DNA from: Kutzneria buriramensis
GTDB taxonomy: Bacteria; Actinomycetota; Actinomycetes; Mycobacteriales; Pseudonocardiaceae
Direction of reading: 5' to 3'
NCBI RefSeq assembly: GCF_003387475.1
Contig: NZ_QUNO01000003.1
Span: 620,001 to 684,000 of the forward strand
DNA length: 64,000 bases
Shown here: piece by piece, positions 9,035 to 42,509 of the stretch
Layout of the letters: each line of letters begins with the position of its first letter
How positions within the stretch are numbered: position 1 is the stretch's first letter
Notes under the pieces: model-generated
What the model was told of the DNA's origin: nothing
Databases searched by the model: none
What the model saw: only the letters and a program-made list of their open reading frames with translations
Program-made: the position numbers and the translations under genes

Positions 9035-10510
9035 GTGACGACGCAACATGGTTTCGAGGTCCGCGGTCTGGACGTGCCCCGCGGCGCGGCGCCGCCGACG
9101 GGTCGGTTCGGCCGGATGTTCCCGACGCTGCCCGGGCGCCCGCCGACGGGCCTGGAGATGGCGGAGCGGTTCGGCCTGCCGGGCGGGCTGATGGACGGCG
9201 GCGACACGACCAGCCAGCAGGACAGCCCCACGCTGGACGCGGGCTTCACGTTCCTGGGCCAGTTCATCGACCACAACATCACCTTCGACGTGACCGGCAA
9301 CCTGGGCCGGCAGGTCGACCCGGAGGCGACGACCAACTTCCGGCCGCCGATGCTGGACCTCGACCACCTGTACGGCTCGGGCCCGTTCGCGAGCCCGCTG
9401 CTGTACGACACCGATTCGCACAACACGAAGCTGGTGCTGTCGCCGGACGGCGTCGACCTGGGCCGCACCGCCGCCGGGGTGGCGCTGATCGGCGACCCCC
9501 GCAACGACGAGAACCTGCTGCTCAACCAGACCCACCTGGCGTTCATCAAGTTCCACAACCGGGTGGTGGACGGGCTGCGCGACGGCGAGATCACCGACGT
9601 GTTCGGCAACCGGTTCCCGCCGCCGCCCGCGGACGACCCGAACCCGCCGGCCAACGCGTCGATCGCCGACCTGCTGAGCGTGCGCACCTACTGGGACGAC
9701 CTGTTCGCGGCGGCGCAGCAGATCGTACGCTGGCACTACCAGTGGATCATCGTGCACGAGTACCTGCCGCTGGTCTGCGGCCAGGACGCGGTGGACCGGA
9801 TCGACCGGCACGGCCTGCGGTTCTTCGATCCGGGCGGCCACCCGTTCATCCCGGTGGAGTTCGCGGTGGCGGCGTTCCGCTTCATGCACCCGACGATCCG
9901 CTCCGACTACGCCGTCAACGACAAGTTCACGCTGCCGCTGTTCCCGTCGGACTTCACCGAGCCCGCCCCGACGGATCCGCAGCAGCGCACCGACCTGCGC
10001 GGCGGCCCGGTGGCCCCGGAGTTCGCGCTGGACTTCCGGCACTTCTACACGATCGACGGCTCGCGGCCGCAGCGAGCCAAGCGGATCGAGGCGAAGCTGA
10101 ACGTGCGGCTGCTCGACCTGCCGCCGATCACGGACGTGCCGGTGGAGATCGGCCGCCAGCTGCGCTCGCTGGTGGTGCGCAACCTGCTGCGCAGCGAGGT
10201 GCAGCAACTGCCGTCCGGCCAGGACATCAGCCGCAAGATCGGCCAGGTGCCGCTGACCGACGCCGAACTGGCCACCACCGGGCCGATCTACCTCTGGTAC
10301 TACATCCTCAAGGAGGCGGAGGTCCGCCACGGCGGCGGCCGGCTCGGCGCGGTCGGCGGCCTGATCGTCAGCGAGGTGCTGGTGGGCCTGCTCGACGCCG
10401 ACCCGACCTCGTACCGCTCCACGTACCCGATCTGGACGCCGACGCTGGCCGACAGCGAGGGCCGGTTCGGCATGGCCCAACTGCTCCGCTTCGCGGGTGT
10501 GGTGGAGTGA
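9035..10510 (+). CDS. Animal-type heme peroxidase (peroxinectin-like)
   Basis: A 491-residue protein with the animal heme peroxidase fold. The distal His lies in LGQFIDHNITFD (about residue 80). The catalytic Arg and heme-linked Glu lie in GDPRNDENLL. The proximal His is in AFRFMHPTIRSDY (about residue 285). These are the residues used by myeloperoxidase-like enzymes to oxidise halides or organic donors with hydrogen peroxide. No signal peptide is visible. The GTG at 9035 is chosen because TAGGGGG lies 4 bases upstream; open frame exists upstream but is not peroxidase-like. The preceding 264 bases (8771-9034) hold no gene. Its stop overlaps the start of a 32-codon ORF. Confidence 0.88.
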   Translation: MTTQHGFEVRGLDVPRGAAPPTGRFGRMFPTLPGRPPTGLEMAERFGLPGGLMDGGDTTSQQDSPTLDAGFTFLGQFIDHNITFDVTGNLGRQVDPEATTNFRPPMLDLDHLYGSGPFASPLLYDTDSHNTKLVLSPDGVDLGRTAAGVALIGDPRNDENLLLNQTHLAFIKFHNRVVDGLRDGEITDVFGNRFPPPPADDPNPPANASIADLLSVRTYWDDLFAAAQQIVRWHYQWIIVHEYLPLVCGQDAVDRIDRHGLRFFDPGGHPFIPVEFAVAAFRFMHPTIRSDYAVNDKFTLPLFPSDFTEPAPTDPQQRTDLRGGPVAPEFALDFRHFYTIDGSRPQRAKRIEAKLNVRLLDLPPITDVPVEIGRQLRSLVVRNLLRSEVQQLPSGQDISRKIGQVPLTDAELATTGPIYLWYYILKEAEVRHGGGRLGAVGGLIVSEVLVGLLDADPTSYRSTYPIWTPTLADSEGRFGMAQLLRFAGVVE

Positions 10511-10608
10511 TGTCCCGGGAGCTGTTGTTCGCGCCGTTCGGCTTCCGGCTCGACGACTACGGCCGGCTGGACGTGCCGGCCGGCGCGCAGGGCATGGCGG
10601 TCGACTGA
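10510..10608 (+). CDS. Translationally coupled 32-residue peptide after the peroxidase
   Basis: An ATG overlaps the peroxidase stop (TGATG arrangement) and opens a 32-codon ORF beginning MSRELLFAPFGFRLDDYG and ending AQGMAVD. Codon bias looks like that of neighbouring genes. No family is recognised. Coupling implies it would be made with the peroxidase. It could equally be a remnant of a longer partner. A hairpin follows immediately. Confidence 0.4.
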   Translation: MSRELLFAPFGFRLDDYGRLDVPAGAQGMAVD

Positions 10609-10615
10609 AGGGCCT

Positions 10616-10653
10616 CGGGGGGCGAGGTTTGCCACCACTGGCCTCGCCTCCCC
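10616..10653 (+). terminator. Hairpin after the peroxidase unit
   Basis: GGGGGGCGAGG (about 10617-10627) pairs with CCTCGCCTCCCC (10642-10653) with one bulged base, between the peroxidase unit and the next gene. Confidence 0.5.
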
Positions 10654-10694
10654 GCTGCTACGGTGATCTGATCGCCGTGATGAGGGGTGACCGC

Positions 10695-11108
10695 ATGGAC
10701 CCGATCATGACCACGATCGCCGCCGCGCTGGCCAAGGAAGCCGTCACTTCCGGCAAGCAGGCACTGGGCAAACTCCTCGAACGGGTGAAGGAGCGGTTCG
10801 CGAAGGACCCCGGCTCGGAGATCGTGCTGGCCTCCGCGCAGGAGAACCCGGACGACACCAAGTGGGTCGACGCGCTGGCCAGGGTGTTGGACCGGACGGG
10901 TGAAGCGGATCCGGAGTTCGCGGCGGAGCTGCGAGAGCTGTGGGCGGCGGCCAAGCCGGAGGTCCACTCCGTCGAGCAGACCGCGAGCGGTCACGGCGTG
11001 AACAACTCCAACTCCATCAGCGGCAAGGTCATCGGCAACGTCGTGCAGGCCTACAAGATCACCGGCGATATACACGGCACGGCCGGGACTGATCAGCCGA
11101 GCTGGTGA
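10695..11108 (+). CDS. Small helical protein with C-terminal RHIM-like amyloid signalling motif
   Basis: The 137-residue product starts at the ATG at 10695 (GAGGGGTGA 6-13 bases upstream); the in-frame ATG 10680 and GTG 10677 are alternatives. Residues 1-95 are predicted mostly helical, with no recognised fold. Residues 103-128 read N-N-S-NSISGKVIGNVVQA and continue to an ITGDIHG end. This is the Gly/Val/Gln-rich pattern of bacterial RHIM-like amyloid signalling motifs (BASS3-type). Such motifs couple a sensor to an effector by templated fibril formation. The same motif opens the HSP90-like protein at 36.7 kb. A TACGGT hexamer at 10659-10664 could be its -10. Its end overlaps the convergent TPR gene by 16 bases. 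Function is inferred from the motif only. Confidence 0.7.
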   Translation: MDPIMTTIAAALAKEAVTSGKQALGKLLERVKERFAKDPGSEIVLASAQENPDDTKWVDALARVLDRTGEADPEFAAELRELWAAAKPEVHSVEQTASGHGVNNSNSISGKVIGNVVQAYKITGDIHGTAGTDQPSW

Positions 11109-29540: not shown

Positions 29541-30299
29541 TCAGATGTCGCCCAGCCACTCCACCGCCCGGCGCAGCGGATCACCGGTACCCTCGTCGGG
29601 CTCGATCGCCGACTCGTGGCGGCGGCCGCGGCGATCGACCGCCACCGACGTGGTGATCGCCAGCGCCGAGCCGTCGGAGAGTCGGCAGAGGACATTGCCG
29701 GTGGGCACGCCGGCGGTCGCGGCGCCGAAGGACCGGGTCAGCGGCCGGCCTCGGAACGCCACCACGACGCCCTCCGCGGAGCTCGCCGTGCGCCCGTCGT
29801 GCAGAACCGCGACGGGCAGATCCGTGAGGTCGACGGCCTGGGTGCGGTTGCCGAAGCGCACACGCTCGCCGGTTCTTCTTTCGTACGAGAGGAAATCCGC
29901 GTCACCGAGCAGCGGATCCACCACGGCGAGCATCGGCCGGATGTTGCCGCCGGTGTTGCCCCGCAGATCGACGACCCAGGCCCTCGCCGGACGTCGCAGC
30001 ACCTCGCGACCAACCCGCGCGTAGTCGCCGCCCTCGCCTCTCACGCCCGGCAGCCGCAGCACACCAACGCCCTTCACGACCTCACCGCTCGGCAACTCCC
30101 CTTGCGCGCGCATACCGGCGCCGACCAGTCTGCTGTGCCGGTCGCCCAGCGACGCGAACGCCAGCCGCAGCGCCTCGCGGAGCGTGCCGCCGCTGCTCAT
30201 GACGGCCAACGCGGCGTCGGTCACCGACTCCCAGTCGACACGGTCCGCGTAGTACGCCCGCGTCCGCAGCAGCTCGAGCGCCTCCTCGACCGGGCTCAC
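29541..30299 (-). CDS. S41-family (tail-specific-like) peptidase
   Basis: A 252-residue protein with the S41 core: VVDLRGNTGGNIRPML, VAVLHDGRTASSAEGVVVAFRGR containing the candidate nucleophile Ser, and SFGAATAGVPTGN. No PDZ domain and no signal peptide are visible, so it is smaller than classic C-terminal processing peptidases. The start GTG overlaps the stop of the giant AAA+ gene (GTGA), so the two proteins are made together. A chaperone-protease pairing is possible but inferred only from coupling. Confidence 0.8.
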   Translation of the reverse strand: MSPVEEALELLRTRAYYADRVDWESVTDAALAVMSSGGTLREALRLAFASLGDRHSRLVGAGMRAQGELPSGEVVKGVGVLRLPGVRGEGGDYARVGREVLRRPARAWVVDLRGNTGGNIRPMLAVVDPLLGDADFLSYERRTGERVRFGNRTQAVDLTDLPVAVLHDGRTASSAEGVVVAFRGRPLTRSFGAATAGVPTGNVLCRLSDGSALAITTSVAVDRRGRRHESAIEPDEGTGDPLRRAVEWLGDI

Positions 30300-33200
30300 G
30301 CCGGCAGGTCGACGGCGTGCAGGGTCTGCAACTCCTCGTCGGGCAGCGCGTCGAGGTCGACGTCCGGACCACCAAGACGGACGGCCTGCCGGGCGATGGT
30401 CCGCTCCAGCAGGCCCCGCGCCGAGCGGCCGTTGGCGAAGCCGACGCCCCGGTCGATGGCGGCGATCGCGGCCGGCAGGGCGGCGCGCAGGTCGTCGGCG
30501 AGCAGGTAGCTCTGGCTCCTGGCCATCGCCTCGAAGATGCCGGTCAGCTCCTCGTTGCTGTAGTCGGGGAAGTTCACGGTCGCCCCGAACCGCGACCGCA
30601 GGCCGGAGTTGGCGTCCAGGAAGCGGTCCATGTCGGCGGGGTAGCCGGCGGCGATCACGAGCAGGTCGTCGCGGTGATTCTCCATCTGCACAAGGATTTC
30701 GGCGATAGCCTCCGGGCCGTAGTCGCCCTGCGTGGCGCCGACGAGCGTGTACGCCTCGTCGATGAACAGCACGCCGCCGATGGCCTTCTCACAGACGGCA
30801 CGGGTCTTGGTCGCGGTCTGCCCGAGGTACTCGGCGATCAGGTCGGGACGGCTGGTTTCCACGAGGTGCCCGGACGACAGCACGCCCATCTCCCGGAACA
30901 GCTGGGCGATCAGCCGCGCCACGGTCGTCTTGGCGGTGCCCGGATTGCCCGTGAACACCAGATGCCGGCTGCGTGGCGCGACCTTGAGCCCGGCCGACCG
31001 GCGGCGCGCGTCCACCCGGGTTTCGGCGACGAGCGTGTGCACTTGCTCCTTCACCGGTGCCAGCCCGATCATGCCGTCCAGTTCGGCGAGCAAGTCGGCG
31101 AGGCTACGCCGCTTGCCGCCGTCGCCCTGCTGCACGCCACTGTCTTCGGGCGCCGGCAAATCCGCTGCCACCAACAGGTTCAGCACCGAGGCGTCGACGT
31201 TTCCGGCGGCGGCGAGCCGTCCGGACTGCTTGGTGATGGTCGCCTCCAGCAGCTGCCGCGAGGACCGTCCGTTGGCGAAGCCGCGGCCGCGCGGGATGCG
31301 TGTGATCCGTTGCGGCAGCGCGGAAAGCAGGTCCTCGGCGAGGCGATAACCCTGGCCCTGGGCCATGACCTCGAAGATCCGCGCCAGTTCCTCGTTGCTG
31401 TAGTCCGGGAACTCGACACGGTTGGCGAAACGGGATCGGAGGCCGGGGTTGGCCTCCATGAAGTCGTCCATCTCCTTGGGGTAGCCGGCCGCGATCACGA
31501 TCAGGTCGTCACGGTGGTTCTCCATCTGCACCAACAACTCCGCGACCGCTTCGGGCCCGTAATCGCCCTGAGTGCCACTGACCAGCGTGTACGCCTCGTC
31601 GACGAACAGCACGCCGCCCATCGCGCTCTCGCACACCGCGCGAGTCTTCGGCGCGGTCTGGCCGAGGTACTCGGCGACGAGGTCGGACCGCTGCGCCTCG
31701 ACGACGTGACCCGAGCTGACCACGCCGAGCTCGCGGTAGATCTGGGCGATCAGCCTGGCCACGGTTGTCTTGGCGGTGCCGGGATTGCCGGTGAACACCA
31801 GATGCCGGCTGCGCTCCGCGGTCTTCATCCCGGCGGCGCGCCGCTTGCTGTCGATGTCCATCTCGGCGACCATCGCCTTCACCCGCTGCTTCACGGGTTC
31901 CAGCCCGATCATTGTGTCCAATTCGGACAGTAGCTCCGGCAAGGTCTTGCGCCGGCCGCCACTTCCCTGCGACACACCGGCCTCGTCCGGCGCGGGCAGG
32001 TCGGCGGCGGTCAGGGCGTTCAACGTCGCCGCATCGGCCTGACCGGCCCCGGCCAGCCGCGCCGCCTGCTGGGTAAGCGTCGCCTCCAGCAGTTGCCGCG
32101 CCGACCGGCCGTTGGCGAAGCCGCGGCCACGCGGGATCAGCCGGATCCGGTCCGGCAGCGCCGCGACCAGGTCACCGGACGCGGTGTAGCCCTGGTCGTG
32201 CGCCATCGCCAGGAAGATCTTCGCCAGTTCCTCGTTGCTGTAGTCGGGGAACTCCACGCGGTTGGCGAATCGCGAGCGCAGGCCGGGGTTGGCCTCCATG
32301 AAGTCGTCCATCAGCTTCGGGTAGCCGGCGACGATCACGATCATGTCGGCGCGATGGTTCTCCATCTGCACCAACAGTTCCGCCACCGCCTCGCCGCCGA
32401 AGTCGCCTTGCTTGTCGCTGACCAGCGTGTACGCCTCGTCGACGAACAGGATGCCGCCCAGGGCGTCCTCGCAGACGGCGCGGGTCTTCGGCGCGGTCTG
32501 GCCGGTGTACTCGGCGACCAGGTCCGACCGCTGCGCCTCGATCACGTGCCCGGAGGTGACGACGCCGAGCTCGCGGTAGATCTCGCCGATCAACCGTGCC
32601 ACGGTGGTCTTCGCGGTGCCGGGATTGCCCGTGAACACCAGGTGCCGGCTGCGCGGCGAGATCGGCAACCCCTGCTGACGACGCTGGCGGTCGATGTCCA
32701 TCTCCGCGACCATCGAGCGCACCCGGCGCTTCACCGGCTCCAGGCCGATCATCTTGTCCAACTCGGACAGCAGCTCAGGCAGATTCCGTTGCCTGCCAAC
32801 GGCTCCCATCCGCACGCCGGTGTCGCCCGGAGCCGGGATGTCCGCGGCGACCAGGCGGTTCAGGGACGCCACGTCCGCGTTCGGGTTGGCGGCCAGCCGC
32901 GCCGACTGCCGGCTGATCGTCGCCTCCAGCAGCTGCCGCGCCGACCGTCCGTTGGCGAAACCCTTGCCACGGTTGACCCGGCTCATCCGCACCGGCAGCG
33001 CGGCCAGCAGGTCCGGACCCAGCTCATAGCCCTGTGCCTTGGCCATCAGCTGGAAGATCCGGGCCAGTTCCTCGTTGCTGTAGTCCGGGAACTCGATCCG
33101 GGTCTGGAATCGCGAGCGCAGGCCGGGGTTGGAGTCGAGGAACGTGCTCATCTCCCGCGGATAGCCGGCGACGATGACGATCAGGTCGTCGCGATGGTTC

Positions 33201-35176
33201 TCCATCTGCGCGAGGAGTTCGGCGACCGCCTCGGGGCCGTAGTCCTCGTCGCCGCCCTGCACCAGGTTGTAGGCCTCGTCGATGAACAGCACGCCGCCGT
33301 AGGCCTGCTCGATCAGCTTGCGCGTCTTGCCGGACGTCTCGCCGATGTACTCGCCGACGAGGTCGGCCCGCATGCACTCGACGAGCTGACCGCCGGCGAG
33401 CACACCCAGCTCCCGGTACAGCTCGGCGATCACGCGGGCCATGGTGGTCTTCGCCGTGCCGGGGTTGCCGGTGAAGACGAGGTGCCGGCTGCGCTGCGGG
33501 ATCGGCAGGCCGGCGGCGCGACGGCGCTCGTCCACCTGAAGCTCCGACACCAGCGCGTTGACCTGGCGTTTCACCGAGTCCAGGCCGACCATGCCGTTCA
33601 GCTCGGCCAGCAGCTCGGCGGCGGACTTGCGGTCGCTGTTGCCGGCCGCCTTGCGCAGCTCCTCCAGGTCCGGCACGTCGATGCGCACCATGCCAGGCAT
33701 GGCGCTGCGCATGATCGCGCTCTGGCAGGCGGTCTCGATCACCGCCTCGACCCGGCGGGCGCCGCCCATCGTGCGGTGTGCGCGGCCGCCGGTGATCAGG
33801 TCGGCCATGCCGGCGCGGGCCTGCGGCGTCATCGACGCCTGGCGCTCCGCGGCCAGGACGTCGAGCAGCACCTCGGCGGCGGCCCGCTGTTCGAAGTCCG
33901 GCAGGTGGTAGACGAGCGCGCGCTGCGCCACCGCCGGCGCCGCGTCGGTGAGCTGCTTGAGGAACGCCGGCGTGCCGGCCAGCACCAGCACCGAGCACTC
34001 GTCCTGGTCGTGCGCGACGTCCACGATGATGTCGATCATGCTGCCGCGCTCGCCCGCGTCGGCCAGCAGCGCGTCGGCATTCTCGATCATCAGCACCGGC
34101 GTCTTCTTGAACTCCGCCGTCAGCGCCGCCCGCGTCACCGCTTCGAGTGATTTCTCCTGTTCCTTCGCCGACAGGATCAGGCTCGCCGCGGTCTTGATCA
34201 CCGGCTCGCTCTCGGAGATCGCCTCCGTCACCTTCATGAAGGGGGCGAACGAGCGCACCAGGCGGCGCTGGCCGCTGTGCTGCTGGCCGATCAGCAGGAT
34301 GACCGGGTTGGCCTGGCCGGCGGTGTTCTCCGCGTGCCGGATGCCGTCCGCCCACATGATCACGCGCTTGGCCTTCTCGAAGAAGGCCGCCACGGGTTCG
34401 CCGGTGCGCACGAAGTGGCCGCCGCCGTAGAGCGGCTCGGCCACCGCGGCGGGACCTTGTGGCTGCTGCGGCAACGAAGGCGGACCTTGTTGCGGCAGCG
34501 GCGGCGGTCCCTGCTGGGGAAGCGGTGGCGGGCTTTGCTGGGGCAGCGGCGGGGGCGCCTGCTGTGGCACCGGCTGGAACTGCTGCGTCGGCTGCGCGTT
34601 GGGCGGCGGCTGGAAGGCTTGCGGCGCCGGGAATTGCGGCTGCTGCGGGAACGGCTGTGATGCCGGCTGCTGCGGATAGAGCGATCCCGGCTGCGGAAAC
34701 GGTTGCGACACCGGCGCTTCCGGGTAGGGCGACCCCGGCTGCTGCGTCGGCTGAGACGCCGGCACCGCCGGGTACGGCGACCCCGGCTGCTGCATCGGCT
34801 GAGACGCCGGCACCGCCGGGTACGGCGAGCCTGGCTGCTCCGGATACAGCGAGCCGGCCTGCGGCATCGGCCGGGGCACCGGCTGTGGCATCTGCGGCTG
34901 GGCCACGGGCTGCGACGCCGGCTGCGGCATGGGCTGTGACATCGGTTGCTGCGGCGCCGCGCTGCCCGGCAGCTGCGACGGCCGGGCCGTCGCGCGGAAG
35001 CCCGGGTCCATCGGCGGGGACATCGCCCGCCACTGCCCCACTCCGCGCCACCACAGCCACGGCTGGCCCGGGTTGAGCAGCCACCACGCGCCGTCCGGTG
35101 TGGTCAGGACGGTCGTGCGGCCCATCGCGGCCCCGCGCTCGGCCTCCGCGAACGGGTCCCAACCCGCGCCCGTCAT
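30296..35176 (-). CDS. Giant protein with four tandem CbxX/CfqX-type AAA+ ATPase modules
   Basis: 1626 residues. Residues 1-60 have Trp-rich PDGAWWLLNPGQPWLWW. Residues about 75-255 are Pro/Gln-rich with tandem QQPGSPYPAVPASQP and PPLPQQG repeats. Residues about 265-500 form a degenerate AAA domain lacking the Walker Lys (GQQHSGQRRL). Four near-identical AAA+ modules follow with about 280-residue periodicity; each has RSRHLVFTGNPGTAKTT (Walker A near residues 569, 849, 1129, 1409), FIDEAY/FVDEAY (Walker B) and NPGLRSRF or a variant. The modules belong to the CbxX/CfqX (SpoVK, EccA-like) group. Start ATG 35176 after GGAGGGGGA. It is coupled to the S41 peptidase. The substrate is unknown. Confidence 0.88.
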   Translation of the reverse strand: MTGAGWDPFAEAERGAAMGRTTVLTTPDGAWWLLNPGQPWLWWRGVGQWRAMSPPMDPGFRATARPSQLPGSAAPQQPMSQPMPQPASQPVAQPQMPQPVPRPMPQAGSLYPEQPGSPYPAVPASQPMQQPGSPYPAVPASQPTQQPGSPYPEAPVSQPFPQPGSLYPQQPASQPFPQQPQFPAPQAFQPPPNAQPTQQFQPVPQQAPPPLPQQSPPPLPQQGPPPLPQQGPPSLPQQPQGPAAVAEPLYGGGHFVRTGEPVAAFFEKAKRVIMWADGIRHAENTAGQANPVILLIGQQHSGQRRLVRSFAPFMKVTEAISESEPVIKTAASLILSAKEQEKSLEAVTRAALTAEFKKTPVLMIENADALLADAGERGSMIDIIVDVAHDQDECSVLVLAGTPAFLKQLTDAAPAVAQRALVYHLPDFEQRAAAEVLLDVLAAERQASMTPQARAGMADLITGGRAHRTMGGARRVEAVIETACQSAIMRSAMPGMVRIDVPDLEELRKAAGNSDRKSAAELLAELNGMVGLDSVKRQVNALVSELQVDERRRAAGLPIPQRSRHLVFTGNPGTAKTTMARVIAELYRELGVLAGGQLVECMRADLVGEYIGETSGKTRKLIEQAYGGVLFIDEAYNLVQGGDEDYGPEAVAELLAQMENHRDDLIVIVAGYPREMSTFLDSNPGLRSRFQTRIEFPDYSNEELARIFQLMAKAQGYELGPDLLAALPVRMSRVNRGKGFANGRSARQLLEATISRQSARLAANPNADVASLNRLVAADIPAPGDTGVRMGAVGRQRNLPELLSELDKMIGLEPVKRRVRSMVAEMDIDRQRRQQGLPISPRSRHLVFTGNPGTAKTTVARLIGEIYRELGVVTSGHVIEAQRSDLVAEYTGQTAPKTRAVCEDALGGILFVDEAYTLVSDKQGDFGGEAVAELLVQMENHRADMIVIVAGYPKLMDDFMEANPGLRSRFANRVEFPDYSNEELAKIFLAMAHDQGYTASGDLVAALPDRIRLIPRGRGFANGRSARQLLEATLTQQAARLAGAGQADAATLNALTAADLPAPDEAGVSQGSGGRRKTLPELLSELDTMIGLEPVKQRVKAMVAEMDIDSKRRAAGMKTAERSRHLVFTGNPGTAKTTVARLIAQIYRELGVVSSGHVVEAQRSDLVAEYLGQTAPKTRAVCESAMGGVLFVDEAYTLVSGTQGDYGPEAVAELLVQMENHRDDLIVIAAGYPKEMDDFMEANPGLRSRFANRVEFPDYSNEELARIFEVMAQGQGYRLAEDLLSALPQRITRIPRGRGFANGRSSRQLLEATITKQSGRLAAAGNVDASVLNLLVAADLPAPEDSGVQQGDGGKRRSLADLLAELDGMIGLAPVKEQVHTLVAETRVDARRRSAGLKVAPRSRHLVFTGNPGTAKTTVARLIAQLFREMGVLSSGHLVETSRPDLIAEYLGQTATKTRAVCEKAIGGVLFIDEAYTLVGATQGDYGPEAIAEILVQMENHRDDLLVIAAGYPADMDRFLDANSGLRSRFGATVNFPDYSNEELTGIFEAMARSQSYLLADDLRAALPAAIAAIDRGVGFANGRSARGLLERTIARQAVRLGGPDVDLDALPDEELQTLHAVDLPA
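31916..31928. repeat. GTCCA-N3-YGGAC palindrome, copy 6
   Basis: GTCCAATTCGGAC lies in the third AAA+ module. The related site in the second module is copy 7 at 32756. Confidence 0.4.
32756..32768. repeat. GTCCA-N3-YGGAC palindrome, copy 7
   Basis: GTCCAACTCGGAC is paralogous in position to copy 6, so these two are not independent. Confidence 0.35.
34470..34880 (-). repeat. Pro/Gln-rich coding repeats in the AAA+ protein
   Basis: Tandem in-frame repeats encode QQPGSPYPAVPASQP-like units (about 34720-34840) and PPLPQQG-like units (about 34480-34560), forming a disordered linker. Confidence 0.7.
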
Positions 35177-35791: not shown

Positions 35792-35829
35792 TATTGACCG
35801 GACGAGTCCGGGCACGCGAGGATCGTCGT

Positions 35830-36630
35830 GTGTCCGTGGAGGAGCTCGCTGCCGAGGTCGGCCTGCCGACCAGCACGATCCGCATGTACCAGACCAAGGG
35901 TCTGCTGCATGCGCCGCGACGCGTCGGCCGCACCGCCCGCTACGACGCCAGTCACGTGCAGCGGCTCCGGCTCGTGCAGCGGCTCCAGGACCGGGGCTTC
36001 TCCCTGCCCGCCATCGCGCAGCTGCTCGCCGCCCGGGACCGCGGCGACACCGTCGCCGACGTCCTCGGGCTCGCCCCCGACGGTCCCGAGGACTGGATTC
36101 CCATCGGCATCAACGAGATCCGCGCGCTGGTGTCCGTACGGGAGCTGCGACCGTCGCTGCTGCGCCGGGCCACCCAGCTCGGTCTCGTCAAGTGGCGGCA
36201 CGGCCGGCCGCACACCCGCCGCTGGGCCCTCGAGAGCGGCTCCCGCCTCTGCCAGCTCACCATCGGGCCGCAGGAGGTGCTCGGCCAGTACGAGCGTCTG
36301 CGCGAGGCCACCGACCGCGTCGCCGCCGACTTCGTCGACGTCTTCCAGCGGCACGTGTGGCCGTCCATCGCCGAGACCAGCGGGCAGGCCGACCAGCTCG
36401 ACCAGGTCCGGTCGCTGCTGATCGAGCTCACCAGCACCGCCGAGAGCGTCGTCGTCGGCGCGCTGCGGGAGTCCATTCGCGACGCCACCGAGCAGTTCGC
36501 CGCCACCCACGGGCTGCTCGAGGACGACCCCGCCTGGCTCGCCGAGCCCGTGCCGGCCATCGCCGAGCGGCTCACCGAGCCCGGCGGCGAGGAGCCCGAC
36601 ATCGAGGGATTCCTCGCCGGCGAGGACTAG
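35830..36630 (+). CDS. MerR-family transcriptional regulator
   Basis: 266 residues from the GTG at 35830. The N-terminal winged HTH is SVEELAAEVGLPTSTIRMYQTKGLLHAPRRVGRTARYDASHVQRLRLVQRLQDRGFSLPAI, the MerR DNA-binding domain. The rest is a helical effector domain with no Cys cluster, so metal sensing is unlikely. An upstream TTG at 35794 would add 12 residues, but that TTG falls in a possible -35, and GAGGAT sits close to 35830. The inverted repeat upstream suggests self-control. A strong hairpin starts at its stop codon. Confidence 0.85.
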   Translation: MSVEELAAEVGLPTSTIRMYQTKGLLHAPRRVGRTARYDASHVQRLRLVQRLQDRGFSLPAIAQLLAARDRGDTVADVLGLAPDGPEDWIPIGINEIRALVSVRELRPSLLRRATQLGLVKWRHGRPHTRRWALESGSRLCQLTIGPQEVLGQYERLREATDRVAADFVDVFQRHVWPSIAETSGQADQLDQVRSLLIELTSTAESVVVGALRESIRDATEQFAATHGLLEDDPAWLAEPVPAIAERLTEPGGEEPDIEGFLAGED

Positions 36631-36677
36631 CGGCTGGGCGCGCCGTAACCAGGGGGTGCGGCGCGCCCAGCCGCTAG
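36627..36677 (+). terminator. Perfect 19-bp hairpin after merR
   Basis: Arms 36627-36645 and 36659-36677 are perfectly complementary with a 13-base loop. The left arm contains the merR stop codon. The right arm runs into the -10 hexamer of the next gene. Confidence 0.8.
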
Positions 36678-36680
36678 TCT
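36675..36680 (+). promoter_or_regulatory. -10 element for leaderless HSP90-like gene
   Basis: TAGTCT lies exactly 6 bases before the ATG at 36687. Its first three bases are the end of the merR terminator stem. Confidence 0.5.
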
Positions 36681-36686
36681 CGTCGG

Positions 36687-38936
36687 ATGGCCAGCGGTGG
36701 CAACGACAACTCGATCTCCGGGCACGTCTCCAACGCCGTGCAGGCACACACGGTGTACGGGGGCATCCACCAGTACGCATCGCCGCAGGCCGCCCCGCCG
36801 CCGACCGATCCATGGGGCCGGCTGGTCCACGACTCCAAGGCCTGGCAGCCCTCGCACGACCGCTCCCCCGCCATCGCTGTCGCCGGCCAACTGGCCGCGC
36901 TGAATCCCGCTCTTCCCGCCGAGGACCGCTGGCTCGACGACTCCTTCGTCACGCGCTTCTCCCAGAGCGTTGACTGGGTCGTCAACAGACTCAGCGAGGA
37001 GTACATGTTCAGCCAGGCCGAGGCGACCCTGCTCGCACTGATTCCGCTGCTGCACGAAGTAGTGTGGCGGCGCGCCGCTGAGAGAAGGTTGCCCGCCGTT
37101 CCCGACAAGGAGCTGGCAAAGGTCGACAGCCGGCTTGCCGCCCGAATGAAGGAGCACGAAGAGATCCGATGGTGGCTGCGGCACCGCTGGCTGTGGCTCG
37201 AGGCCGACGTGCTCGCCACCGACGCGATCAACACCGTGCTCGAGGAGATCGACGGGTTGGAGGAGTTCAAGTCCGAGCGGGCGGCAGTACTCCTGCAAGG
37301 CCTTCGCCTTGACACGCACCAACTCTGCGAGGGGTCGCGGATCAACGAACTGAACGAGCAGCAGACGATCCACGGCGGAACCGGCGACGAGCAACCACTC
37401 AGTCTTCCGCTCCTCAGCCTCGTCCTCGCCATCGCGTATCGCAAGACGATCGACACGACCGACCTGTCCAGCGTCATCACATGGCACGGTCCGACGGTGC
37501 TCGACCATCTACACGAAACCGTGTCAGCGGTGTTCTGGCAGGTCCATGCCGGCTGCCTGCTGCCGTTCGCGAAATGTCATCACGCCGCCGTTGCCGCGGC
37601 ACTACACGAACACACAAACCACCTCGACGAGTTCCTGCACGCCGTTCGCCGCGCCGCAGAGGACCCCACCGTCCTCCATCCCCTGCGACGACTGCCGGGG
37701 CGTGCCATCGGCGGCAGCATCCGCGCCGCCAAGGGGCCGGACGGCAAGGAGGCGTTCAGCGGCTGGAGCCGGTTCACCATCGACGAGGAGCGGCTGCGGG
37801 AGCTGGTGATGGGCGTTCAGCTCTACCACGACCGGAGTCTGGCGATTCGTGAGATGTACCAGAACGCTCTCGACGCATGCCGCTACCGCCGGGCGCGGGA
37901 GATGTACCTGGACGCGACCACCGACGACCGCGAGTCGCGTTGGATCGGTCAGATCGCCTTCAAGCAGGGTGTCGACGCCTCTGGCCCCTACCTCGACTGC
38001 GTCGACAACGGCATCGGCATGGGCCACGCGGAACTTGTCGGTGCCTTCGCCCAGGCCGGTGCCCGCTTCGCCGACCTCGACGAGTTCCGGCGTGAGCAGG
38101 TGGAGTGGTCACGCGCGAACCCGCCGATCGAGCTGCACCCGAACAGCCGCTTCGGCATCGGCGTGCACAGCTACTTCATGCTGGCCAACGAGATCACCGT
38201 CACCACGTGCCGCATGGACAGGAAAACCGGGCACGCGGGCGCGGAGCTGACCGTCAAGATCATCGGTCCCGGTCAGCTCTTCGAGATCAAAGAGACCGCT
38301 GAACGGGGAACCATCGGCACCAAGGTCCGCCTGCACCTAAACCGCAGTCTTCCCGAATCCTGCGTCGCCATTCTGACCCGCCTGCTGGCCGTCGCGGAGT
38401 TTGAGACCACCGCCGAGGACGGGGAGCTCAACCAGCGGTGGGATCCTGGCATCTTCAAGCCCCGTGAAGGATTTCGCGATGACGGCGGTTACAACGCACA
38501 CGGAGAAACCGCATCCACCACCGGCGGCCAGGTTCTCTGGTGCGAGAAAGGCGGTGGCCTACTTATCGACGGTCTGCACGTCACACCCAAATCGGACGAT
38601 CCGACGTACGAGGAACTGGGTACGCTCGTCAATCTGACGGGCCGCGAGGCACCATCCCCGTCGACAGATCGAAAGGAGATCCTGGAACACGTCGGCCCTC
38701 GCGTCACCAAATTACAGAAGGCCGCACTCGCCTACCTCGCCGACTCAAAACTCCTCCTTTCGAAAGATTGGATAGACCGCCTCGGGCGACAAAACCCCCA
38801 ACTCGCGGATCTTATTACCGACCACTACCCCGAACATCGCCGATTTTCTGAAGACCGCACGATCGCCCCCAAATTCGGGCGACAGCTCACCAAAACATCC
38901 GTGCATGACACCATACTGGACCATATACTACTCTGA
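36687..38936 (+). CDS. Conflict-system protein: RHIM-like motif + inactive-HD-like region + HSP90-type ATPase
   Basis: 749 residues. Residues 6-28 read NDNSISGHVSNAVQA and continue to a YGGIH end, a RHIM-like amyloid signalling motif. A Pro/Ala linker follows. A helical region (about 75-340, with LIPLLHEVVWRR) resembles the inactive HD domains described in prokaryotic conflict systems. From about residue 370 a GHKL/HSP90 ATPase has all nucleotide-binding boxes: EMYQNALDACRYRR (N box), DCVDNGIGM (G1) and SRFGIGVHSYFM (G2). The stop TGA at 38934 is followed in the same frame by the wHTH-repeat ORF. G+C falls toward the 3' end and a TTA codon occurs (38712). It is probably a defence or self/non-self response protein. 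Confidence 0.8.
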   Translation: MASGGNDNSISGHVSNAVQAHTVYGGIHQYASPQAAPPPTDPWGRLVHDSKAWQPSHDRSPAIAVAGQLAALNPALPAEDRWLDDSFVTRFSQSVDWVVNRLSEEYMFSQAEATLLALIPLLHEVVWRRAAERRLPAVPDKELAKVDSRLAARMKEHEEIRWWLRHRWLWLEADVLATDAINTVLEEIDGLEEFKSERAAVLLQGLRLDTHQLCEGSRINELNEQQTIHGGTGDEQPLSLPLLSLVLAIAYRKTIDTTDLSSVITWHGPTVLDHLHETVSAVFWQVHAGCLLPFAKCHHAAVAAALHEHTNHLDEFLHAVRRAAEDPTVLHPLRRLPGRAIGGSIRAAKGPDGKEAFSGWSRFTIDEERLRELVMGVQLYHDRSLAIREMYQNALDACRYRRAREMYLDATTDDRESRWIGQIAFKQGVDASGPYLDCVDNGIGMGHAELVGAFAQAGARFADLDEFRREQVEWSRANPPIELHPNSRFGIGVHSYFMLANEITVTTCRMDRKTGHAGAELTVKIIGPGQLFEIKETAERGTIGTKVRLHLNRSLPESCVAILTRLLAVAEFETTAEDGELNQRWDPGIFKPREGFRDDGGYNAHGETASTTGGQVLWCEKGGGLLIDGLHVTPKSDDPTYEELGTLVNLTGREAPSPSTDRKEILEHVGPRVTKLQKAALAYLADSKLLLSKDWIDRLGRQNPQLADLITDHYPEHRRFSEDRTIAPKFGRQLTKTSVHDTILDHILL

Positions 38937-38975
38937 CGACTGCTCGCAAACGGCGATCCGGACAGCCTTGCCGCA

Positions 38976-40070
38976 TTGGCACCGGACGCCATGCCGGCCG
39001 GCACACTTCTCCAACCAAGACCGTCCGACGCATTTCTCCTCGGCAGCCCCAACTGGCGGTCAACGAAGCAACTGAGGACGCCGGGACACATCGTCTCCAC
39101 TGCCGAGAAGTTCGGAAGGTCAGCCCAGGAGATCGCCTTACGCTTGAGCAAGCTGGGTATCGAAGGTATTGAAGCCGGGCTGTACTCAAACGACCACTGG
39201 CGCACATACCGAGCCGAAATAGCCCTACTCGCCACCACCGATCCCCACTCGACCGGCTGGCACCCACAGTCCGAGGTCATGCCGTATCACCACCTCGCAA
39301 CAACGGCAAGAAGGATACAACTCCCCCTGGCCGACGCGATCAAAGTGGCGGAACACTATGACATCAGGGTGTCACCACCACCACCAGATGGCCCAATTAA
39401 GGCCAGCAATTCGATCGGCGACGTGATTGCCGCAGCACGTCACATGGGTGTCGGACTGGATAAATTCGTCACGTACACCGGGGAGATCAAGTTTGCAGAC
39501 CGCATAGATAACCTACTCCTGGAGGACATCGATGACACAAACAAGCCGATCGCCCTGGGACACCTGCACTACATCGCCCAAGAGCTCGATCTCGACATCG
39601 ACGAAGTCACACAGTACGTAGTAAACGTAGGATTGACACCTCCAAACGTTCGCAGGGAGTTGTCGACCGACGACCTGGAACTCATCAGCGTCGACCTGGA
39701 CGGCCGCGGCCCCTGGCTCGACACCAGACTACCGGTTCAGCCGCACCATTTGATCAAAGCCTACGCAGATTTGTACCTGCCACCCGAGCAAGTGGTCGCC
39801 AGGCTCACGAGCCTAGGCTTCAGAATGGCATTCGCAGAGCTACCCGATCTCACCGGCTTCCCCGATCTGACACTGCTTCGCCAGGCTTCCACAGGTCTTT
39901 ATCTAGATCCGGACAAGCCGGTCACGTTGGCCCATCTGGTACACGCCAGCCGTCGTCGCTCCGAACCAATCACCGACGTAGCGGAACGGTTGCAGAAGCT
40001 GGGCATGAAGGTGCCGGACCTGGCCACGACCGTCAGAAACGCCATGGCCAGGGTTCCGCGCGAGAACTGA
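38976..40070 (+). CDS. Array of winged-HTH-like repeats, in frame with the HSP90-like gene across one TGA
   Basis: The frame is open from 38937, directly after the HSP90-like stop; 38976 (TTG) is the first possible start and 38991 the first ATG. Neither has a ribosome binding site. The product (about 364 residues) has about six repeats of one shape, such as HIVSTAEKFGRSAQEIALRLSKLGIE, HHLATTARRIQLPLADAIKVAEHYDI and HLIKAYADLYLPPEQVVARLTSLGF. These resemble the wHTH repeats that accompany HSP90/iHD conflict proteins. Bases are clearly A+T-richer than the flanks (line 39481-39540 is about 48% G+C) and a TTA codon lies at 39138. It is most likely the C-terminal part of one protein, split by a nonsense codon or expressed by read-through. 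Confidence 0.65.
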   Translation: MAPDAMPAGTLLQPRPSDAFLLGSPNWRSTKQLRTPGHIVSTAEKFGRSAQEIALRLSKLGIEGIEAGLYSNDHWRTYRAEIALLATTDPHSTGWHPQSEVMPYHHLATTARRIQLPLADAIKVAEHYDIRVSPPPPDGPIKASNSIGDVIAAARHMGVGLDKFVTYTGEIKFADRIDNLLLEDIDDTNKPIALGHLHYIAQELDLDIDEVTQYVVNVGLTPPNVRRELSTDDLELISVDLDGRGPWLDTRLPVQPHHLIKAYADLYLPPEQVVARLTSLGFRMAFAELPDLTGFPDLTLLRQASTGLYLDPDKPVTLAHLVHASRRRSEPITDVAERLQKLGMKVPDLATTVRNAMARVPREN

Positions 40071-40073
40071 GGG

Positions 40074-42509
40074 TTACTCCTCTTCCTCGGGGTCGTCGCC
40101 GGGGACGCCGCCGCCGCGGATGGTGTACAGGACGGAGTCGAGTTCGTCGGGCTTGATGAGGACCTCGCGGGCCTTGGAGCCCTCGGAGGGGCCGACGACG
40201 CCGCGGGTCTCGAGGAGGTCCATGAGGCGGCCGGCCTTGGCGAAGCCCACGCGGAGCTTGCGCTGGAGCATGGACGTGGAGCCGAACTGGCTGGTGACGA
40301 TGAGCTCCGTGGCCTGCACGAGGAGGTCGAGGTCGTCGCCGATGTCGGCGTCGATCTCCTTCTTCTCGGCGGACTTCGCCGAGGTGACGCCGTCGGTGTA
40401 GTCGGGCTGGGCCTGCTCCCGGGTGAAGGCCACGATGTTGTTGATCTCGTCGTCGCCGACGTAGGCGCCCTGGATGCGGACGGGCTTCGCCGCCCCCATG
40501 GGCAGGAACAGGCCGTCGCCCATGCCGATGAGCTTCTCGGCGCCGGGCTGGTCGAGGATGACGCGGGAGTCGGTCAGCGACGACGTGGCGAAGGCCAGCC
40601 GGGACGGCACGTTGGTCTTGATGAGGCCGGTGACGACGTCCACCGACGGCCGCTGGGTGGCGAGCACCAGGTGGATGCCGGCGGCGCGGGCCTTCTGGGT
40701 GATGCGGACGATGGCGTCCTCGACGTCGCGGGGCGCGGTCATCATGAGGTCGGCGAGCTCGTCGACGATGGCGAGAATGTAGGGCCGCGGCCGGTATTCG
40801 CGCTCGGAGCCGGGCGGCGCGGTGATCTCGCCGGACCGCACCTTGCGGTTGAAGTCGTCGATGTGCCGGACCTTGTTGACCTGCATGTCCTGGTACCGCT
40901 GCTCCATCTCCTCCACCAGCCAGGCCAGCGCGGCGGCGGCCTTCTTCGGCTGGGTGATGATGGGCGTGATCAGGTGCGGAATGCCCTCGTACGGCGTGAG
41001 TTCGACCATCTTCGGGTCGATCAGGATCATCCGGCACTCGTCGGGCGTGGCCCGCGCCAGCAGCGACACCAGCATCGAGTTGACGAAGCTCGACTTGCCG
41101 GAGCCGGTGGAGCCGGCGACCAGCAGGTGCGGCATCTTCGCCAGGTTCGCGGTCACGAAGTGACCCTCGATGTCCTTGCCCAGACCGACGATCAGCGGGT
41201 GCTGGTCCTGCACGGTGCTGGGCGCCTTCAGGACGTCGCTGAGCCGGACCATCTCGCGGTCGCTGTTGGGCACCTCGATGCCCACGGCGGACTTGCCGGG
41301 GATCGGCGCGAGCAGCCGCACGTTGTCGGTGGCGGCGGCGTACGCGATGTTCTTGGTCAGGGCGGTGATCTTCTCGACCTTCACGCCCGGCCCGAGCTCG
41401 ACCTCGTACCGGGTGACGGTCGGGCCGCGGGTGAAGCCGGTGACCTGCGCGTCGATGGAGAACTGCTCCAGCACGCCGGTGATGGCCTCGATCATGGAGT
41501 CGTTGGCCCGGCTACGCGACTTCGGCGGATCCCCGGCCTGGAGCATGTCCAGCGACGGCAAGGTGTAGTCGCCCTCGACGGCTCGTGGCGCGACAGGCTT
41601 CTCTGCCGCGGCGGGGGCCTTGCGCGGCGCGGCGGGCTTGGCCACGGGCCGGGCGACCGGTTCGGGCTCGTCGGTCGGAAGTTCCAGCTGCTGCGGCGCT
41701 TCCTCGGCGTCGGCGGCCTGACGGCGTCGCGACGGCCGCCGCAGCCGCACAGCCGAGCTGTCCTTCTCGGTGACGTCGTCGGTGGGTGTGGCCTCCGAAG
41801 CCGACGGCGACGTCGAAGTCGACGGCGTGGCCGACTGGTCGACCAGCGCACGGAGTCGGTTCGGCACCTCGCGAATGGGCGTGCCGGTGAGCAGCAGCAC
41901 GCCGTACACGGCGACGAGTCCGAGCAGCGGCACGGCAACCCAGCCGGTGAGGCCCTGGGCGAGGAAATGCCCGGCGAGCCAACCGAGCGCGCCGCCGGCG
42001 TCGCCGCTCTCGGAGGCGAGTTCGGGCGCGCCGAGGAACAGGTGCAGCAGGCCGAGCACGGACAGTCCGAGCAGCACCATGCCGAAGACGATGCGGGGCC
42101 GCGCCTCGGGCAGCGGGTCGGACCGCATCAGCACGACGCCGATGAACAGCAGCACCAGCGGCAGCACGTAGGCGGCGGCGCCGATGACGCTGCGCACCGC
42201 CATGTCCAGCCAGCCGCCGACGGGGCCGCCGGCGTGCCACCAGACGCCCGCGGCGAAGATCACGCCGAGCCCGATCATCACCATCGCCAGGCCGTCCCGG
42301 CGGTGCGCGGGGTCGAGCTCCTTGGTCCGCCCGACCGCGCGGGCGATGCCGCCGAGGCCCTTGGCCACGACGCCCCAACTCGCCTTCGCCGGGCTGGCGG
42401 CGGGCTTCCGTGCCGCCGCCTTGCCCCGGGGCTTGGTCGCGGGACGGGGCTTGGACGTGCTTCTCCCGCGCGTGGGGGTCCGCTTCGAAGTCGTCGTCCG
42501 GCCTGCCAT
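40074..42509 (-). CDS. ftsK: DNA translocase FtsK
   Basis: 811 residues. The N-terminus is basic and Lys/Pro/Ala-rich (1-50). Four or five transmembrane helices follow (about 70-200), then an acidic linker. The FtsK/SpoIIIE motor has Walker A VAGSTGSGKSSFVNSMLVS (about residue 463), Walker B YILAIVDELADLMM and TQRPSVDVVTG. The C-terminal gamma winged helix (STSMLQRKLRVGFAKAGRLMDLLE) recognises KOPS. It pumps chromosomes through the septum. Start ATG 42509, leaderless. It converges on the wHTH ORF with 3 bases between stops. Confidence 0.96.
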   Translation of the reverse strand: MAGRTTTSKRTPTRGRSTSKPRPATKPRGKAAARKPAASPAKASWGVVAKGLGGIARAVGRTKELDPAHRRDGLAMVMIGLGVIFAAGVWWHAGGPVGGWLDMAVRSVIGAAAYVLPLVLLFIGVVLMRSDPLPEARPRIVFGMVLLGLSVLGLLHLFLGAPELASESGDAGGALGWLAGHFLAQGLTGWVAVPLLGLVAVYGVLLLTGTPIREVPNRLRALVDQSATPSTSTSPSASEATPTDDVTEKDSSAVRLRRPSRRRQAADAEEAPQQLELPTDEPEPVARPVAKPAAPRKAPAAAEKPVAPRAVEGDYTLPSLDMLQAGDPPKSRSRANDSMIEAITGVLEQFSIDAQVTGFTRGPTVTRYEVELGPGVKVEKITALTKNIAYAAATDNVRLLAPIPGKSAVGIEVPNSDREMVRLSDVLKAPSTVQDQHPLIVGLGKDIEGHFVTANLAKMPHLLVAGSTGSGKSSFVNSMLVSLLARATPDECRMILIDPKMVELTPYEGIPHLITPIITQPKKAAAALAWLVEEMEQRYQDMQVNKVRHIDDFNRKVRSGEITAPPGSEREYRPRPYILAIVDELADLMMTAPRDVEDAIVRITQKARAAGIHLVLATQRPSVDVVTGLIKTNVPSRLAFATSSLTDSRVILDQPGAEKLIGMGDGLFLPMGAAKPVRIQGAYVGDDEINNIVAFTREQAQPDYTDGVTSAKSAEKKEIDADIGDDLDLLVQATELIVTSQFGSTSMLQRKLRVGFAKAGRLMDLLETRGVVGPSEGSKAREVLIKPDELDSVLYTIRGGGVPGDDPEEEE

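What the first reader, a model, noticed from the sequence alone, without database searches (positions are those of the whole stretch)
36687..40070. HSP90-like and wHTH-repeat ORFs are one frame broken by a single TGA
The HSP90-like ORF stops at TGA 38934-38936. The very next codon continues an open frame to 40070 in the same register, reading R-LLANGDPDSLAAL before the wHTH-like repeats. The downstream ORF has no ribosome binding site at TTG 38976 or ATG 38991. The stop context is TGA-C, which is known to be leaky. Homologous conflict proteins often carry HSP90 and wHTH parts together. Either a recent nonsense mutation inactivated or split the protein, or read-through produces two forms.
Basis: partly seen in the sequence, partly recalled or inferred. 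Interest (0 to 1): 0.75.

Follow-up and report, generated by a model that had tools for sequence, protein, structure and literature searches.

The report
Nonsense-broken HSP90-wHTH immune-type gene
A soil bacterium's large immune-type gene, which is one unbroken protein in its relatives, has been cut in two by a single stop codon that sits where nearly all relatives carry a tryptophan; it is most likely a recently broken gene at a fast-changing spot of the chromosome.

Summary
In detail: one frame from 36687 to 40070, interrupted only by TGA 38934-38936. The halves belong to one known architecture, iHD-CE plus HSP90/GHKL ATPase, then a wHTH array. In 80 of 80 named relatives examined (the best 80 of 239) the junction lies in one frame, and the TGA column is Trp in 76, Arg in 2, unaligned in 2.

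A recent nonsense mutation is the best reading: the tail has no second stop and is not accelerated. Efficient read-through has no support: no suppressor tRNA, an ordinary tRNA-Trp, and TGA-C ends 13 of 36 likely genes here. Basal read-through would insert Trp and is untested, and so is a sequencing error.

The genome is a Kutzneria. The gene sits between merR and ftsK in four Kutzneria genomes; five flanking proteins are 75-98% identical, the gene about 54%/38%. Family members break often: at least 6 of 39, against 0 of 38 rpoB copies. Ordinary decay in an interesting, little-studied family.

The parts
36687..38933 (+). N-terminal ORF of the broken gene, 749 aa: short N-terminal motif, iHD-CE, HSP90/GHKL ATPase
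36705..36782 (+). residues 7-32, short motif (SISGHVSNAVQAHTVYGGIH) shared with N-termini of NB-ARC proteins of the same genome; resembles bacterial amyloid-signalling motifs of the RHIM-like kind (inference)
36813..37727 (+). iHD-CE domain (PF24401, 1.8e-43; residues 43-347)
37773..38819 (+). HSP90/GHKL ATPase module (residues about 363-711); NCBIfam HtpG partial match to residues 363-554, under its cut-off; profile match to HtpG structures; the 50 Foldseek hits listed (of 728) are HSP90-family entries
38934..38936 (+). premature TGA, in the column of a near-invariant Trp (76 of 80 relatives); in the read-through model it lies in a helix (745-754) that follows a low-confidence linker (730-737)
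38937..40067 (+). orphaned C-terminal part, 377 codons: array of wHTH-HSP90_Na-assoc repeats (PF24410, 2.9e-44, 5 stretches)
40068..40070 (+). stop of the full-length frame (TGA)
35794..36630 (+). upstream neighbour: MerR-family regulator, syntenic in the four Kutzneria genomes that carry the gene
40074..42509 (-). downstream convergent neighbour: FtsK/SpoIIIE, syntenic in the same four genomes

Best explanation
The stretch 36687-40070 is one ancestral gene of about 1127 codons for a single-chain, immune-type regulator: a short N-terminal recruitment motif, an inactive HD domain (iHD-CE), an HSP90-type GHKL ATPase, and a C-terminal array of wHTH domains. In this Kutzneria lineage a single recent nonsense mutation turned a near-invariant Trp, in a helix just after the flexible linker, into TGA. 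Cells would now make a 749-residue protein without the wHTH array, and the array would be essentially untranslated. By analogy with NLR-type proteins I infer that the wHTH array senses or docks, the GHKL domain is the ATP-driven switch and the N-terminal motif recruits an effector; loss of the array then most likely makes the protein non-functional. Shown: domain make-up, fused relatives, the Trp column, the lack of visible decay in the tail. Inferred: immune role, direction of signalling, loss of function.
For: One frame across the junction in 80 of 80 named relatives (the best 80 of 239) and in the three other Kutzneria genomes that carry the gene (frames 1114, 1118 and 1132 aa). The TGA column is Trp in 76 of 80, Arg in 2, unaligned in 2, and Trp in 7 of 7 in a separate alignment, five of whose relatives are also among the 80. 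Domains; fold. Recent: no further stop in 377 codons, where 0.086-0.109 neutral substitutions per site would give one with 95% chance; in LG+G4 trees the C part of this genome is not accelerated (0.944 from the genus ancestor against 0.867-0.909). Breakage of this family is common: at least 6 of 39 genes in the family survey, against 0 of 38 rpoB copies in the same 37 genomes (Fisher two-sided 0.025, or 0.054 without the window gene).
Against: The assembly is a 65-contig draft with no reads to inspect, so a base-calling error is not excluded; errors do occur in these genomes, since ftsK of G001 lies in two frames. The N part, which should still be made, is the part that evolves fast here (0.773 against 0.376-0.380; 34 of 201 otherwise invariant columns changed or missing), so decay or relaxed constraint may have begun before the stop, or the allele may have come from elsewhere. 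Third-position GC falls from about 38487 on, some 450 bases before the stop. The break lies next to a domain boundary, which is where a functional split would also lie.
Confidence: 0.82

Rival explanations
1. Read-through: UGA is decoded by the near-cognate tRNA-Trp in a fraction of passages, which restores the ancestral residue and gives a majority short form and a minority full-length form.
For: The column is Trp in 76 of 80 relatives, so near-cognate decoding would rebuild the ancestral protein; the tail shows no visible decay.
Against: One tRNA-Trp (CCA) found, with a full 5-bp anticodon stem, A9 and G24; the only UCA anticodon among the 54 tRNA matches and the tRNA-Sec match is that of tRNA-Sec. 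No stop at the site in 80 relatives. TGA-C is the usual stop context of this window (13 of 36), so if it leaked strongly most genes would. PMC13092985 (passages read) reports enhanced UGA read-through in E. coli by an expressed tRNA-Trp with a 4-bp stem, which is absent here.
Confidence: 0.07
2. The stop is a sequencing or assembly error and the gene is intact.
For: Draft genome; single-base difference; tail not accelerated; a frame break in a housekeeping gene of another genome of the genus (ftsK of G001).
Against: rpoB is unbroken in 38 of 38 copies of the 37 genomes that carry the family, so breaks from error are not common; the window's contig is long (776,634 bases).
Confidence: 0.08
3. 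Two functional proteins: the stop has split a fusion into an HSP90-type protein and a separately started wHTH protein.
For: The stop lies just after the linker between the two modules; an AGGAG-like word lies about 12 nt before TTG 39144.
Against: No start signal seen before the wHTH part at 38976 or 38991; junction in one frame in 80 of 80 relatives; the Trp lost is near-invariant and belongs to a helix after the linker.
Confidence: 0.03
4. Selenocysteine insertion at the TGA.
For: The genome has a tRNA-Sec (79.8 bits); a hairpin starts about 15 nt downstream of the TGA (z -2.26, 5 of 200 shuffles as good).
Against: 0 of 80 relatives have Cys at this column; it is Trp in 76.
Confidence: 0.005

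Closest known systems
Pfam iHD-CE (PF24401) / HD-CE (PF24391) with wHTH-HSP90_Na-assoc (PF24410)
   Same: All three families match over their cut-offs in the two halves; 239 relatives by pattern and tblastn, the 80 listed all with actinobacterial names and fused.
   Different: This copy carries a stop at the junction. I found no paper in the held library that describes the architecture (searches; passages of PMC7159879, PMC3710099, PMC11090510 and PMC8195603).
HtpG / HSP90 chaperones
   Same: GHKL ATPase domain; E389, N393, D396, D440, G442, G490 and G492, which I take for its nucleotide-pocket motifs from recall, are invariant in 42 rows; HtpG, HSP90 and TRAP1 are the best sequence and fold matches.
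   Different: Score 49.8 against the HtpG cut-off of 371; sequence match limited to the ATPase region; other domains on both sides.
Bacterial NLR-type amyloid signalosomes (BASS motifs, BELL effectors)
   Same: Short N-terminal motif shared with NB-ARC proteins of the genome, and a small ORF of this window with the motif at its C-terminus.
   Different: GHKL ATPase in place of a STAND NTPase, wHTH array in place of TPR repeats, and the possible partner is 25 kb away, not adjacent.

Membership tests
iHD-CE + HSP90-like + wHTH-HSP90_Na-assoc architecture | iHD-CE domain over the curated cut-off | tested here: met
   PF24401 149.6 bits, cut-off 27
iHD-CE + HSP90-like + wHTH-HSP90_Na-assoc architecture | GHKL/HSP90-type ATPase | tested here: met
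   HtpG structures by profile, 1.3e-07; Foldseek HSP90s, best 1.1e-09, TM-scores low for this long model; motif columns invariant in 42 rows. Pfam HATPase_c_3 alone was below its cut-off (12 against 25 bits)
iHD-CE + HSP90-like + wHTH-HSP90_Na-assoc architecture | wHTH repeats in the same polypeptide | tested here: not met
   repeats present (PF24410) but behind a stop in this genome; in the same frame in 80 of 80 relatives. So: a broken member
Pseudogene by nonsense mutation | premature stop in a frame that is open in relatives, at a conserved sense column | tested here: met
Pseudogene by nonsense mutation | accumulated further lesions | tested here: not met
   no further stop in 377 codons, C branch not accelerated: a recent break, or still constrained
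Programmed read-through gene | stop conserved at the site in relatives | tested here: not met
   the junction is in one open frame in 80 of 80 relatives
Programmed read-through gene | suppressor tRNA or altered tRNA-Trp | tested here: not met
Selenoprotein | Cys or Sec in relatives at the column | tested here: not met
   Trp 76, Arg 2, unaligned 2 of 80
HtpG/HSP90 chaperone | family score over the NCBIfam cut-off | tested here: not met
   49.8 bits against 371
BASS-type amyloid signalosome sensor | N-terminal motif shared with other sensors | tested here: inconclusive
   own-genome search: E 3.8e-4 and 4.8e-4 for two NB-ARC proteins, 0.02-2.4 for four more; in-house matrix puts 18 of 79 relatives over a 99% shuffle threshold; the published BASS profiles were not available
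BASS-type amyloid signalosome sensor | STAND NTPase core with an adjacent effector gene | tested here: not met
   GHKL core; neighbours are MerR and FtsK
BASS-type amyloid signalosome sensor | motif forms amyloid | not testable with these tools
   needs a peptide assay

The most novel reading that the evidence does not exclude
The UGA is a regulatory leak: near-cognate tRNA-Trp rebuilds the ancestral residue at low rate, so that the cell makes mostly a sensorless short form and a little full-length form of an HSP90-driven, NLR-like receptor that signals through a RHIM-like N-terminal motif to small effectors such as the one at 10497-11108. This would be a receptor whose sensitivity is set by stop-codon leakage.
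Probability: 0.04. Interest if true: 0.75.

Novelty: new member of a known kind. Interest (0 to 1): 0.36.

Why it matters
As a broken gene it is ordinary. It matters as a clean example that two ORFs are one gene, and it points to an actinobacterial family with HSP90-type switch, wHTH array and NLR-like layout that diverges quickly between conserved neighbours and is lost repeatedly by stops, frameshifts, deletions and an integrative element. That is the pattern expected of costly immune genes (inference). I found no functional study of it in the held library.

Tried and rejected
Rejected: selenocysteine (tRNA-Sec is present, but the column is Trp in 76 and Cys in 0 of 80); a UCA suppressor or 4-bp-stem tRNA-Trp; independent start for the wHTH ORF. 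Negative searches: PADLOC, both halves, no match up to E 0.1; plasmids, C part only, no match at 1e-5.

Led nowhere: the single-sequence genome-contig scan with the C part (23 pattern matches, none a relative); folding the C part alone (mean pLDDT 42.9, not used); a search for the Pfam names (one search listed unrelated uses of the letters). One search failed half-way (empty hmmsearch output) and that part was repeated; one search failed after the first locus and its work was redone; the iqtree step failed and was redone.

Weak points in my own tests: the small matrix was trained on seven own-genome hits that the window motif had itself found (six before an NB-ARC domain, one not), so the window gene's score is circular, and one training row (L249) was set in the wrong register; the count over relatives is not circular. 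The 79 relatives there are the frames over 1000 codons of the 80 loci, L220 dropped. Of the 41 relatives in alignment A2 38 carry the DHxxLxR-like pattern by which I mostly chose them, so the Trp count that I quote is the one over all 80, not the 41 of 41. The 80 loci and the 39 family genes overlap (several are the same genes). 'Broken' in the 39 was judged from frame length and tblastn of the short-framed ones only, so small late breaks may be missed. One search scored only 2 candidates per genome, so paralogues may be missing. Rates come from 8 sequences.
Full report
Observation. The frame from ATG 36687 runs 749 codons to TGA 38934-38936 and continues in the same register for 377 codons to TGA 40068-40070. 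The downstream frame is not chance: 0 of 3000 Markov sequences were open and the other five frames of the stretch hold 6-16 stops. I see no ribosome-binding word before TTG 38976 or ATG 38991.

What the parts are. The first 749 residues match iHD-CE (1.8e-43) and HD-CE (1.6e-16) of Pfam; the 377-residue part matches wHTH-HSP90_Na-assoc with five stretches (2.9e-44). Residues 363-554 match HtpG partially (1.8e-13, 49.8 bits against a cut-off of 371); a profile of 42 sequences finds HtpG structures (1.3e-07; 13 distinct sequences at E 0.01, HSP90-family by name), and the 50 Foldseek hits listed of 728 are HSP90, Hsc82, TRAP1, GRP94 or HtpG entries, with low TM-scores for this long model. The read-through model (mean pLDDT 83.8, pTM 0.74) has a low-confidence linker at 730-737 and then a helix at 745-754, in which residue 750, the stop, lies. 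So the stop removes the wHTH array and leaves the ATPase side.

Homologues. The genomes nearest to the window's are Kutzneria (G004 and G003 match the contig lengths and places of Kutzneria sp. CA-103260 and Kutzneria sp. 744). A scan of species genomes with two patterns from the N part found 239 relatives; the best 80 were kept. In 80 of 80 one frame holds both HSP90 and wHTH matches. At least three of these have a break elsewhere: L220 (TAG within the ATPase), L184 (frame change within the wHTH array) and probably L174 (frame change in the array, near a contig end). The column of the TGA is Trp in 76 of 80, Arg in two Frankia loci (L210, L211) and not aligned in L195 and L226. The stop thus replaced a near-invariant Trp, mostly in a DHxxLWR setting.

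Age and selection. With LG+G4 trees from 8 sequences, the distance of this genome from the Kutzneria ancestor is 0.773 for the N part, against 0.376-0.380 in the other three, and 0.944 for the C part, against 0.867-0.909. The part behind the stop is therefore not accelerated; the part before it is, which my reading did not predict. This genome kept 167 of 201 N columns that are invariant in the other seven sequences (the others keep 0.90-0.98) and 23 of 29 C columns (others 0.72-1.0). Without selection, 0.086-0.109 substitutions per site would give a further stop with 95% chance, and about 0.02 with 50%. The break is recent, or the tail is still constrained. Third-position GC is 0.80 (N) and 0.69 (C), against 0.90-0.95 in three flanking genes and 0.81-0.90 in two intact relatives, and it drops about 450 bases before the stop. 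This points to a foreign or relaxed allele, not to decay that starts at the stop.

Locus. In four Kutzneria genomes the gene lies between merR and ftsK. Between this genome and the three other carriers, MerR is 88-92%, the FtsK C-terminal part 95-96%, RNase J 95-98%, the AAA protein 87-90% and a small ORF next to merR 75-83% identical, while the gene is 54-55% (N) and 38-39% (C) identical. The other three are 76-82% and 55-76% alike. A replaced or very fast allele fits both. Of the seven genomes of the genus searched, G002, G005 and G006 have no match (C part at 1e-10; N part at 1e-20). G002 has merR and ftsK (92%) and, between them, 12-19-residue matches to about residues 91-110 and to the last residues of the relatives' protein, in the right order and orientation, which look like a deletion scar (E 0.002-0.04, weak).

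Breakage in the family. Of 39 genes of the family survey (390 genomes), at least 6 are broken: this one, G083:C5 (TAG), G183 and G166 (frame changes), G066 (frame changes and deletions) and G226. In G226 an integrase, a RepSA (5e-103) and an FtsK-like gene follow the HSP90 half to the contig end, and the wHTH half starts 5 kb into another contig; a 13-base word is shared near both breakpoints, no longer than the longest in 100 shuffles (13), so the element, not the word, is the evidence, and that the two contigs belong together is inference. rpoB, an essential control for assembly error, is unbroken in 38 of 38 copies of the 37 carrier genomes; Fisher two-sided 0.025, or 0.054 when the window gene, which was chosen for being broken, is left out. 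rpoB controls for error, not for dispensability, and one of the 37 genomes does show a frame break in another housekeeping gene (ftsK of G001).

Read-through. The genome gives 54 tRNA matches at E 0.01, 53 over the cut-off; ARAGORN on stretches that cover all 54 and the tRNA-Sec match finds one tRNA-Trp (CCA), and UCA only in tRNA-Sec. The tRNA-Trp has a five-pair anticodon stem, A9 and G24, so it is not the 4-bp-stem kind that PMC13092985 (passages read) reports to raise UGA decoding in E. coli. TGA-C ends 13 of 36 likely genes in the window. Nothing marks this stop as leaky beyond the ordinary. Since near-cognate decoding by tRNA-Trp would give the ancestral residue, a trace of full-length protein is plausible (inference).

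Function. The working of the intact protein is inferred: N-terminal motif for recruitment, GHKL switch, wHTH array for sensing or docking. The motif is shared with N-terminal parts of six proteins of the genome that hold an NB-ARC domain over its cut-off (E of the motif match 3.8e-4 and 4.8e-4 for two, 0.02-2.4 for four) and, at the C-terminus, with a small ORF of this window (10497-11108; E 0.17). Over 79 relatives, 18 exceed a 99% shuffle threshold with a matrix of seven own-genome segments. Sensor-N and effector-C placement is how bacterial amyloid signalling motifs are described in PMC7889193 and PMC8086366 (passages read). This is a lead, not a result.

Verdict. It is a broken member of a known architecture; the breakage is ordinary, the family and its unstable locus are more interesting than the stop.

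Noticed in passing
window 10497-11108 (+): Small ORF (no Pfam match) whose C-terminus carries the same motif (SISGKVIGNVVQAYKITGDIHG) as the N-terminus of the HSP90-type protein and of NB-ARC proteins of the genome; possible effector of an amyloid-type signalling pair.
   Followed up: partly
L086 7443-13041 and L032 1-5129 (genome G226): An integrative element (integrase, RepSA/pSAM2, FtsK-like) appears to have inserted into a relative of this gene at about residue 690 (window numbering, by eye), with the two halves on two contigs.
   Followed up: partly
L244 3000-4100 (Kutzneria G002): Gene missing between ftsK and merR, with short matches that look like a deletion scar, and an ORF of about 120 residues that resembles a RelE/ParE-type toxin (resemblance recalled, not tested).
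   Followed up: partly
window 36625-36679: Inverted repeat, arms of 26 bases at 92% complementarity, that overlaps the merR stop and ends 7 bases before the ATG of the HSP90-type gene; likely merR terminator, which leaves little room for a leader.
   Followed up: partly
window 38487-40067: Third-position GC is 0.62-0.77 in 300-base blocks of this part of the gene, against 0.90-0.95 in three flanking genes; possible foreign segment or relaxed allele.
   Followed up: partly
L023 11154-13741 (Kutzneria G001): ftsK lies in two overlapping frames (595 and 389 codons), probably an assembly error in that genome.
   Followed up: no
window 30296-35176 (-): 1626-residue protein with four AAA and four AAA-lid stretches (PF00004, PF17866), close to merR; in G003 it falls into several overlapping matches, so its repeats may differ between Kutzneria genomes.
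   Followed up: no
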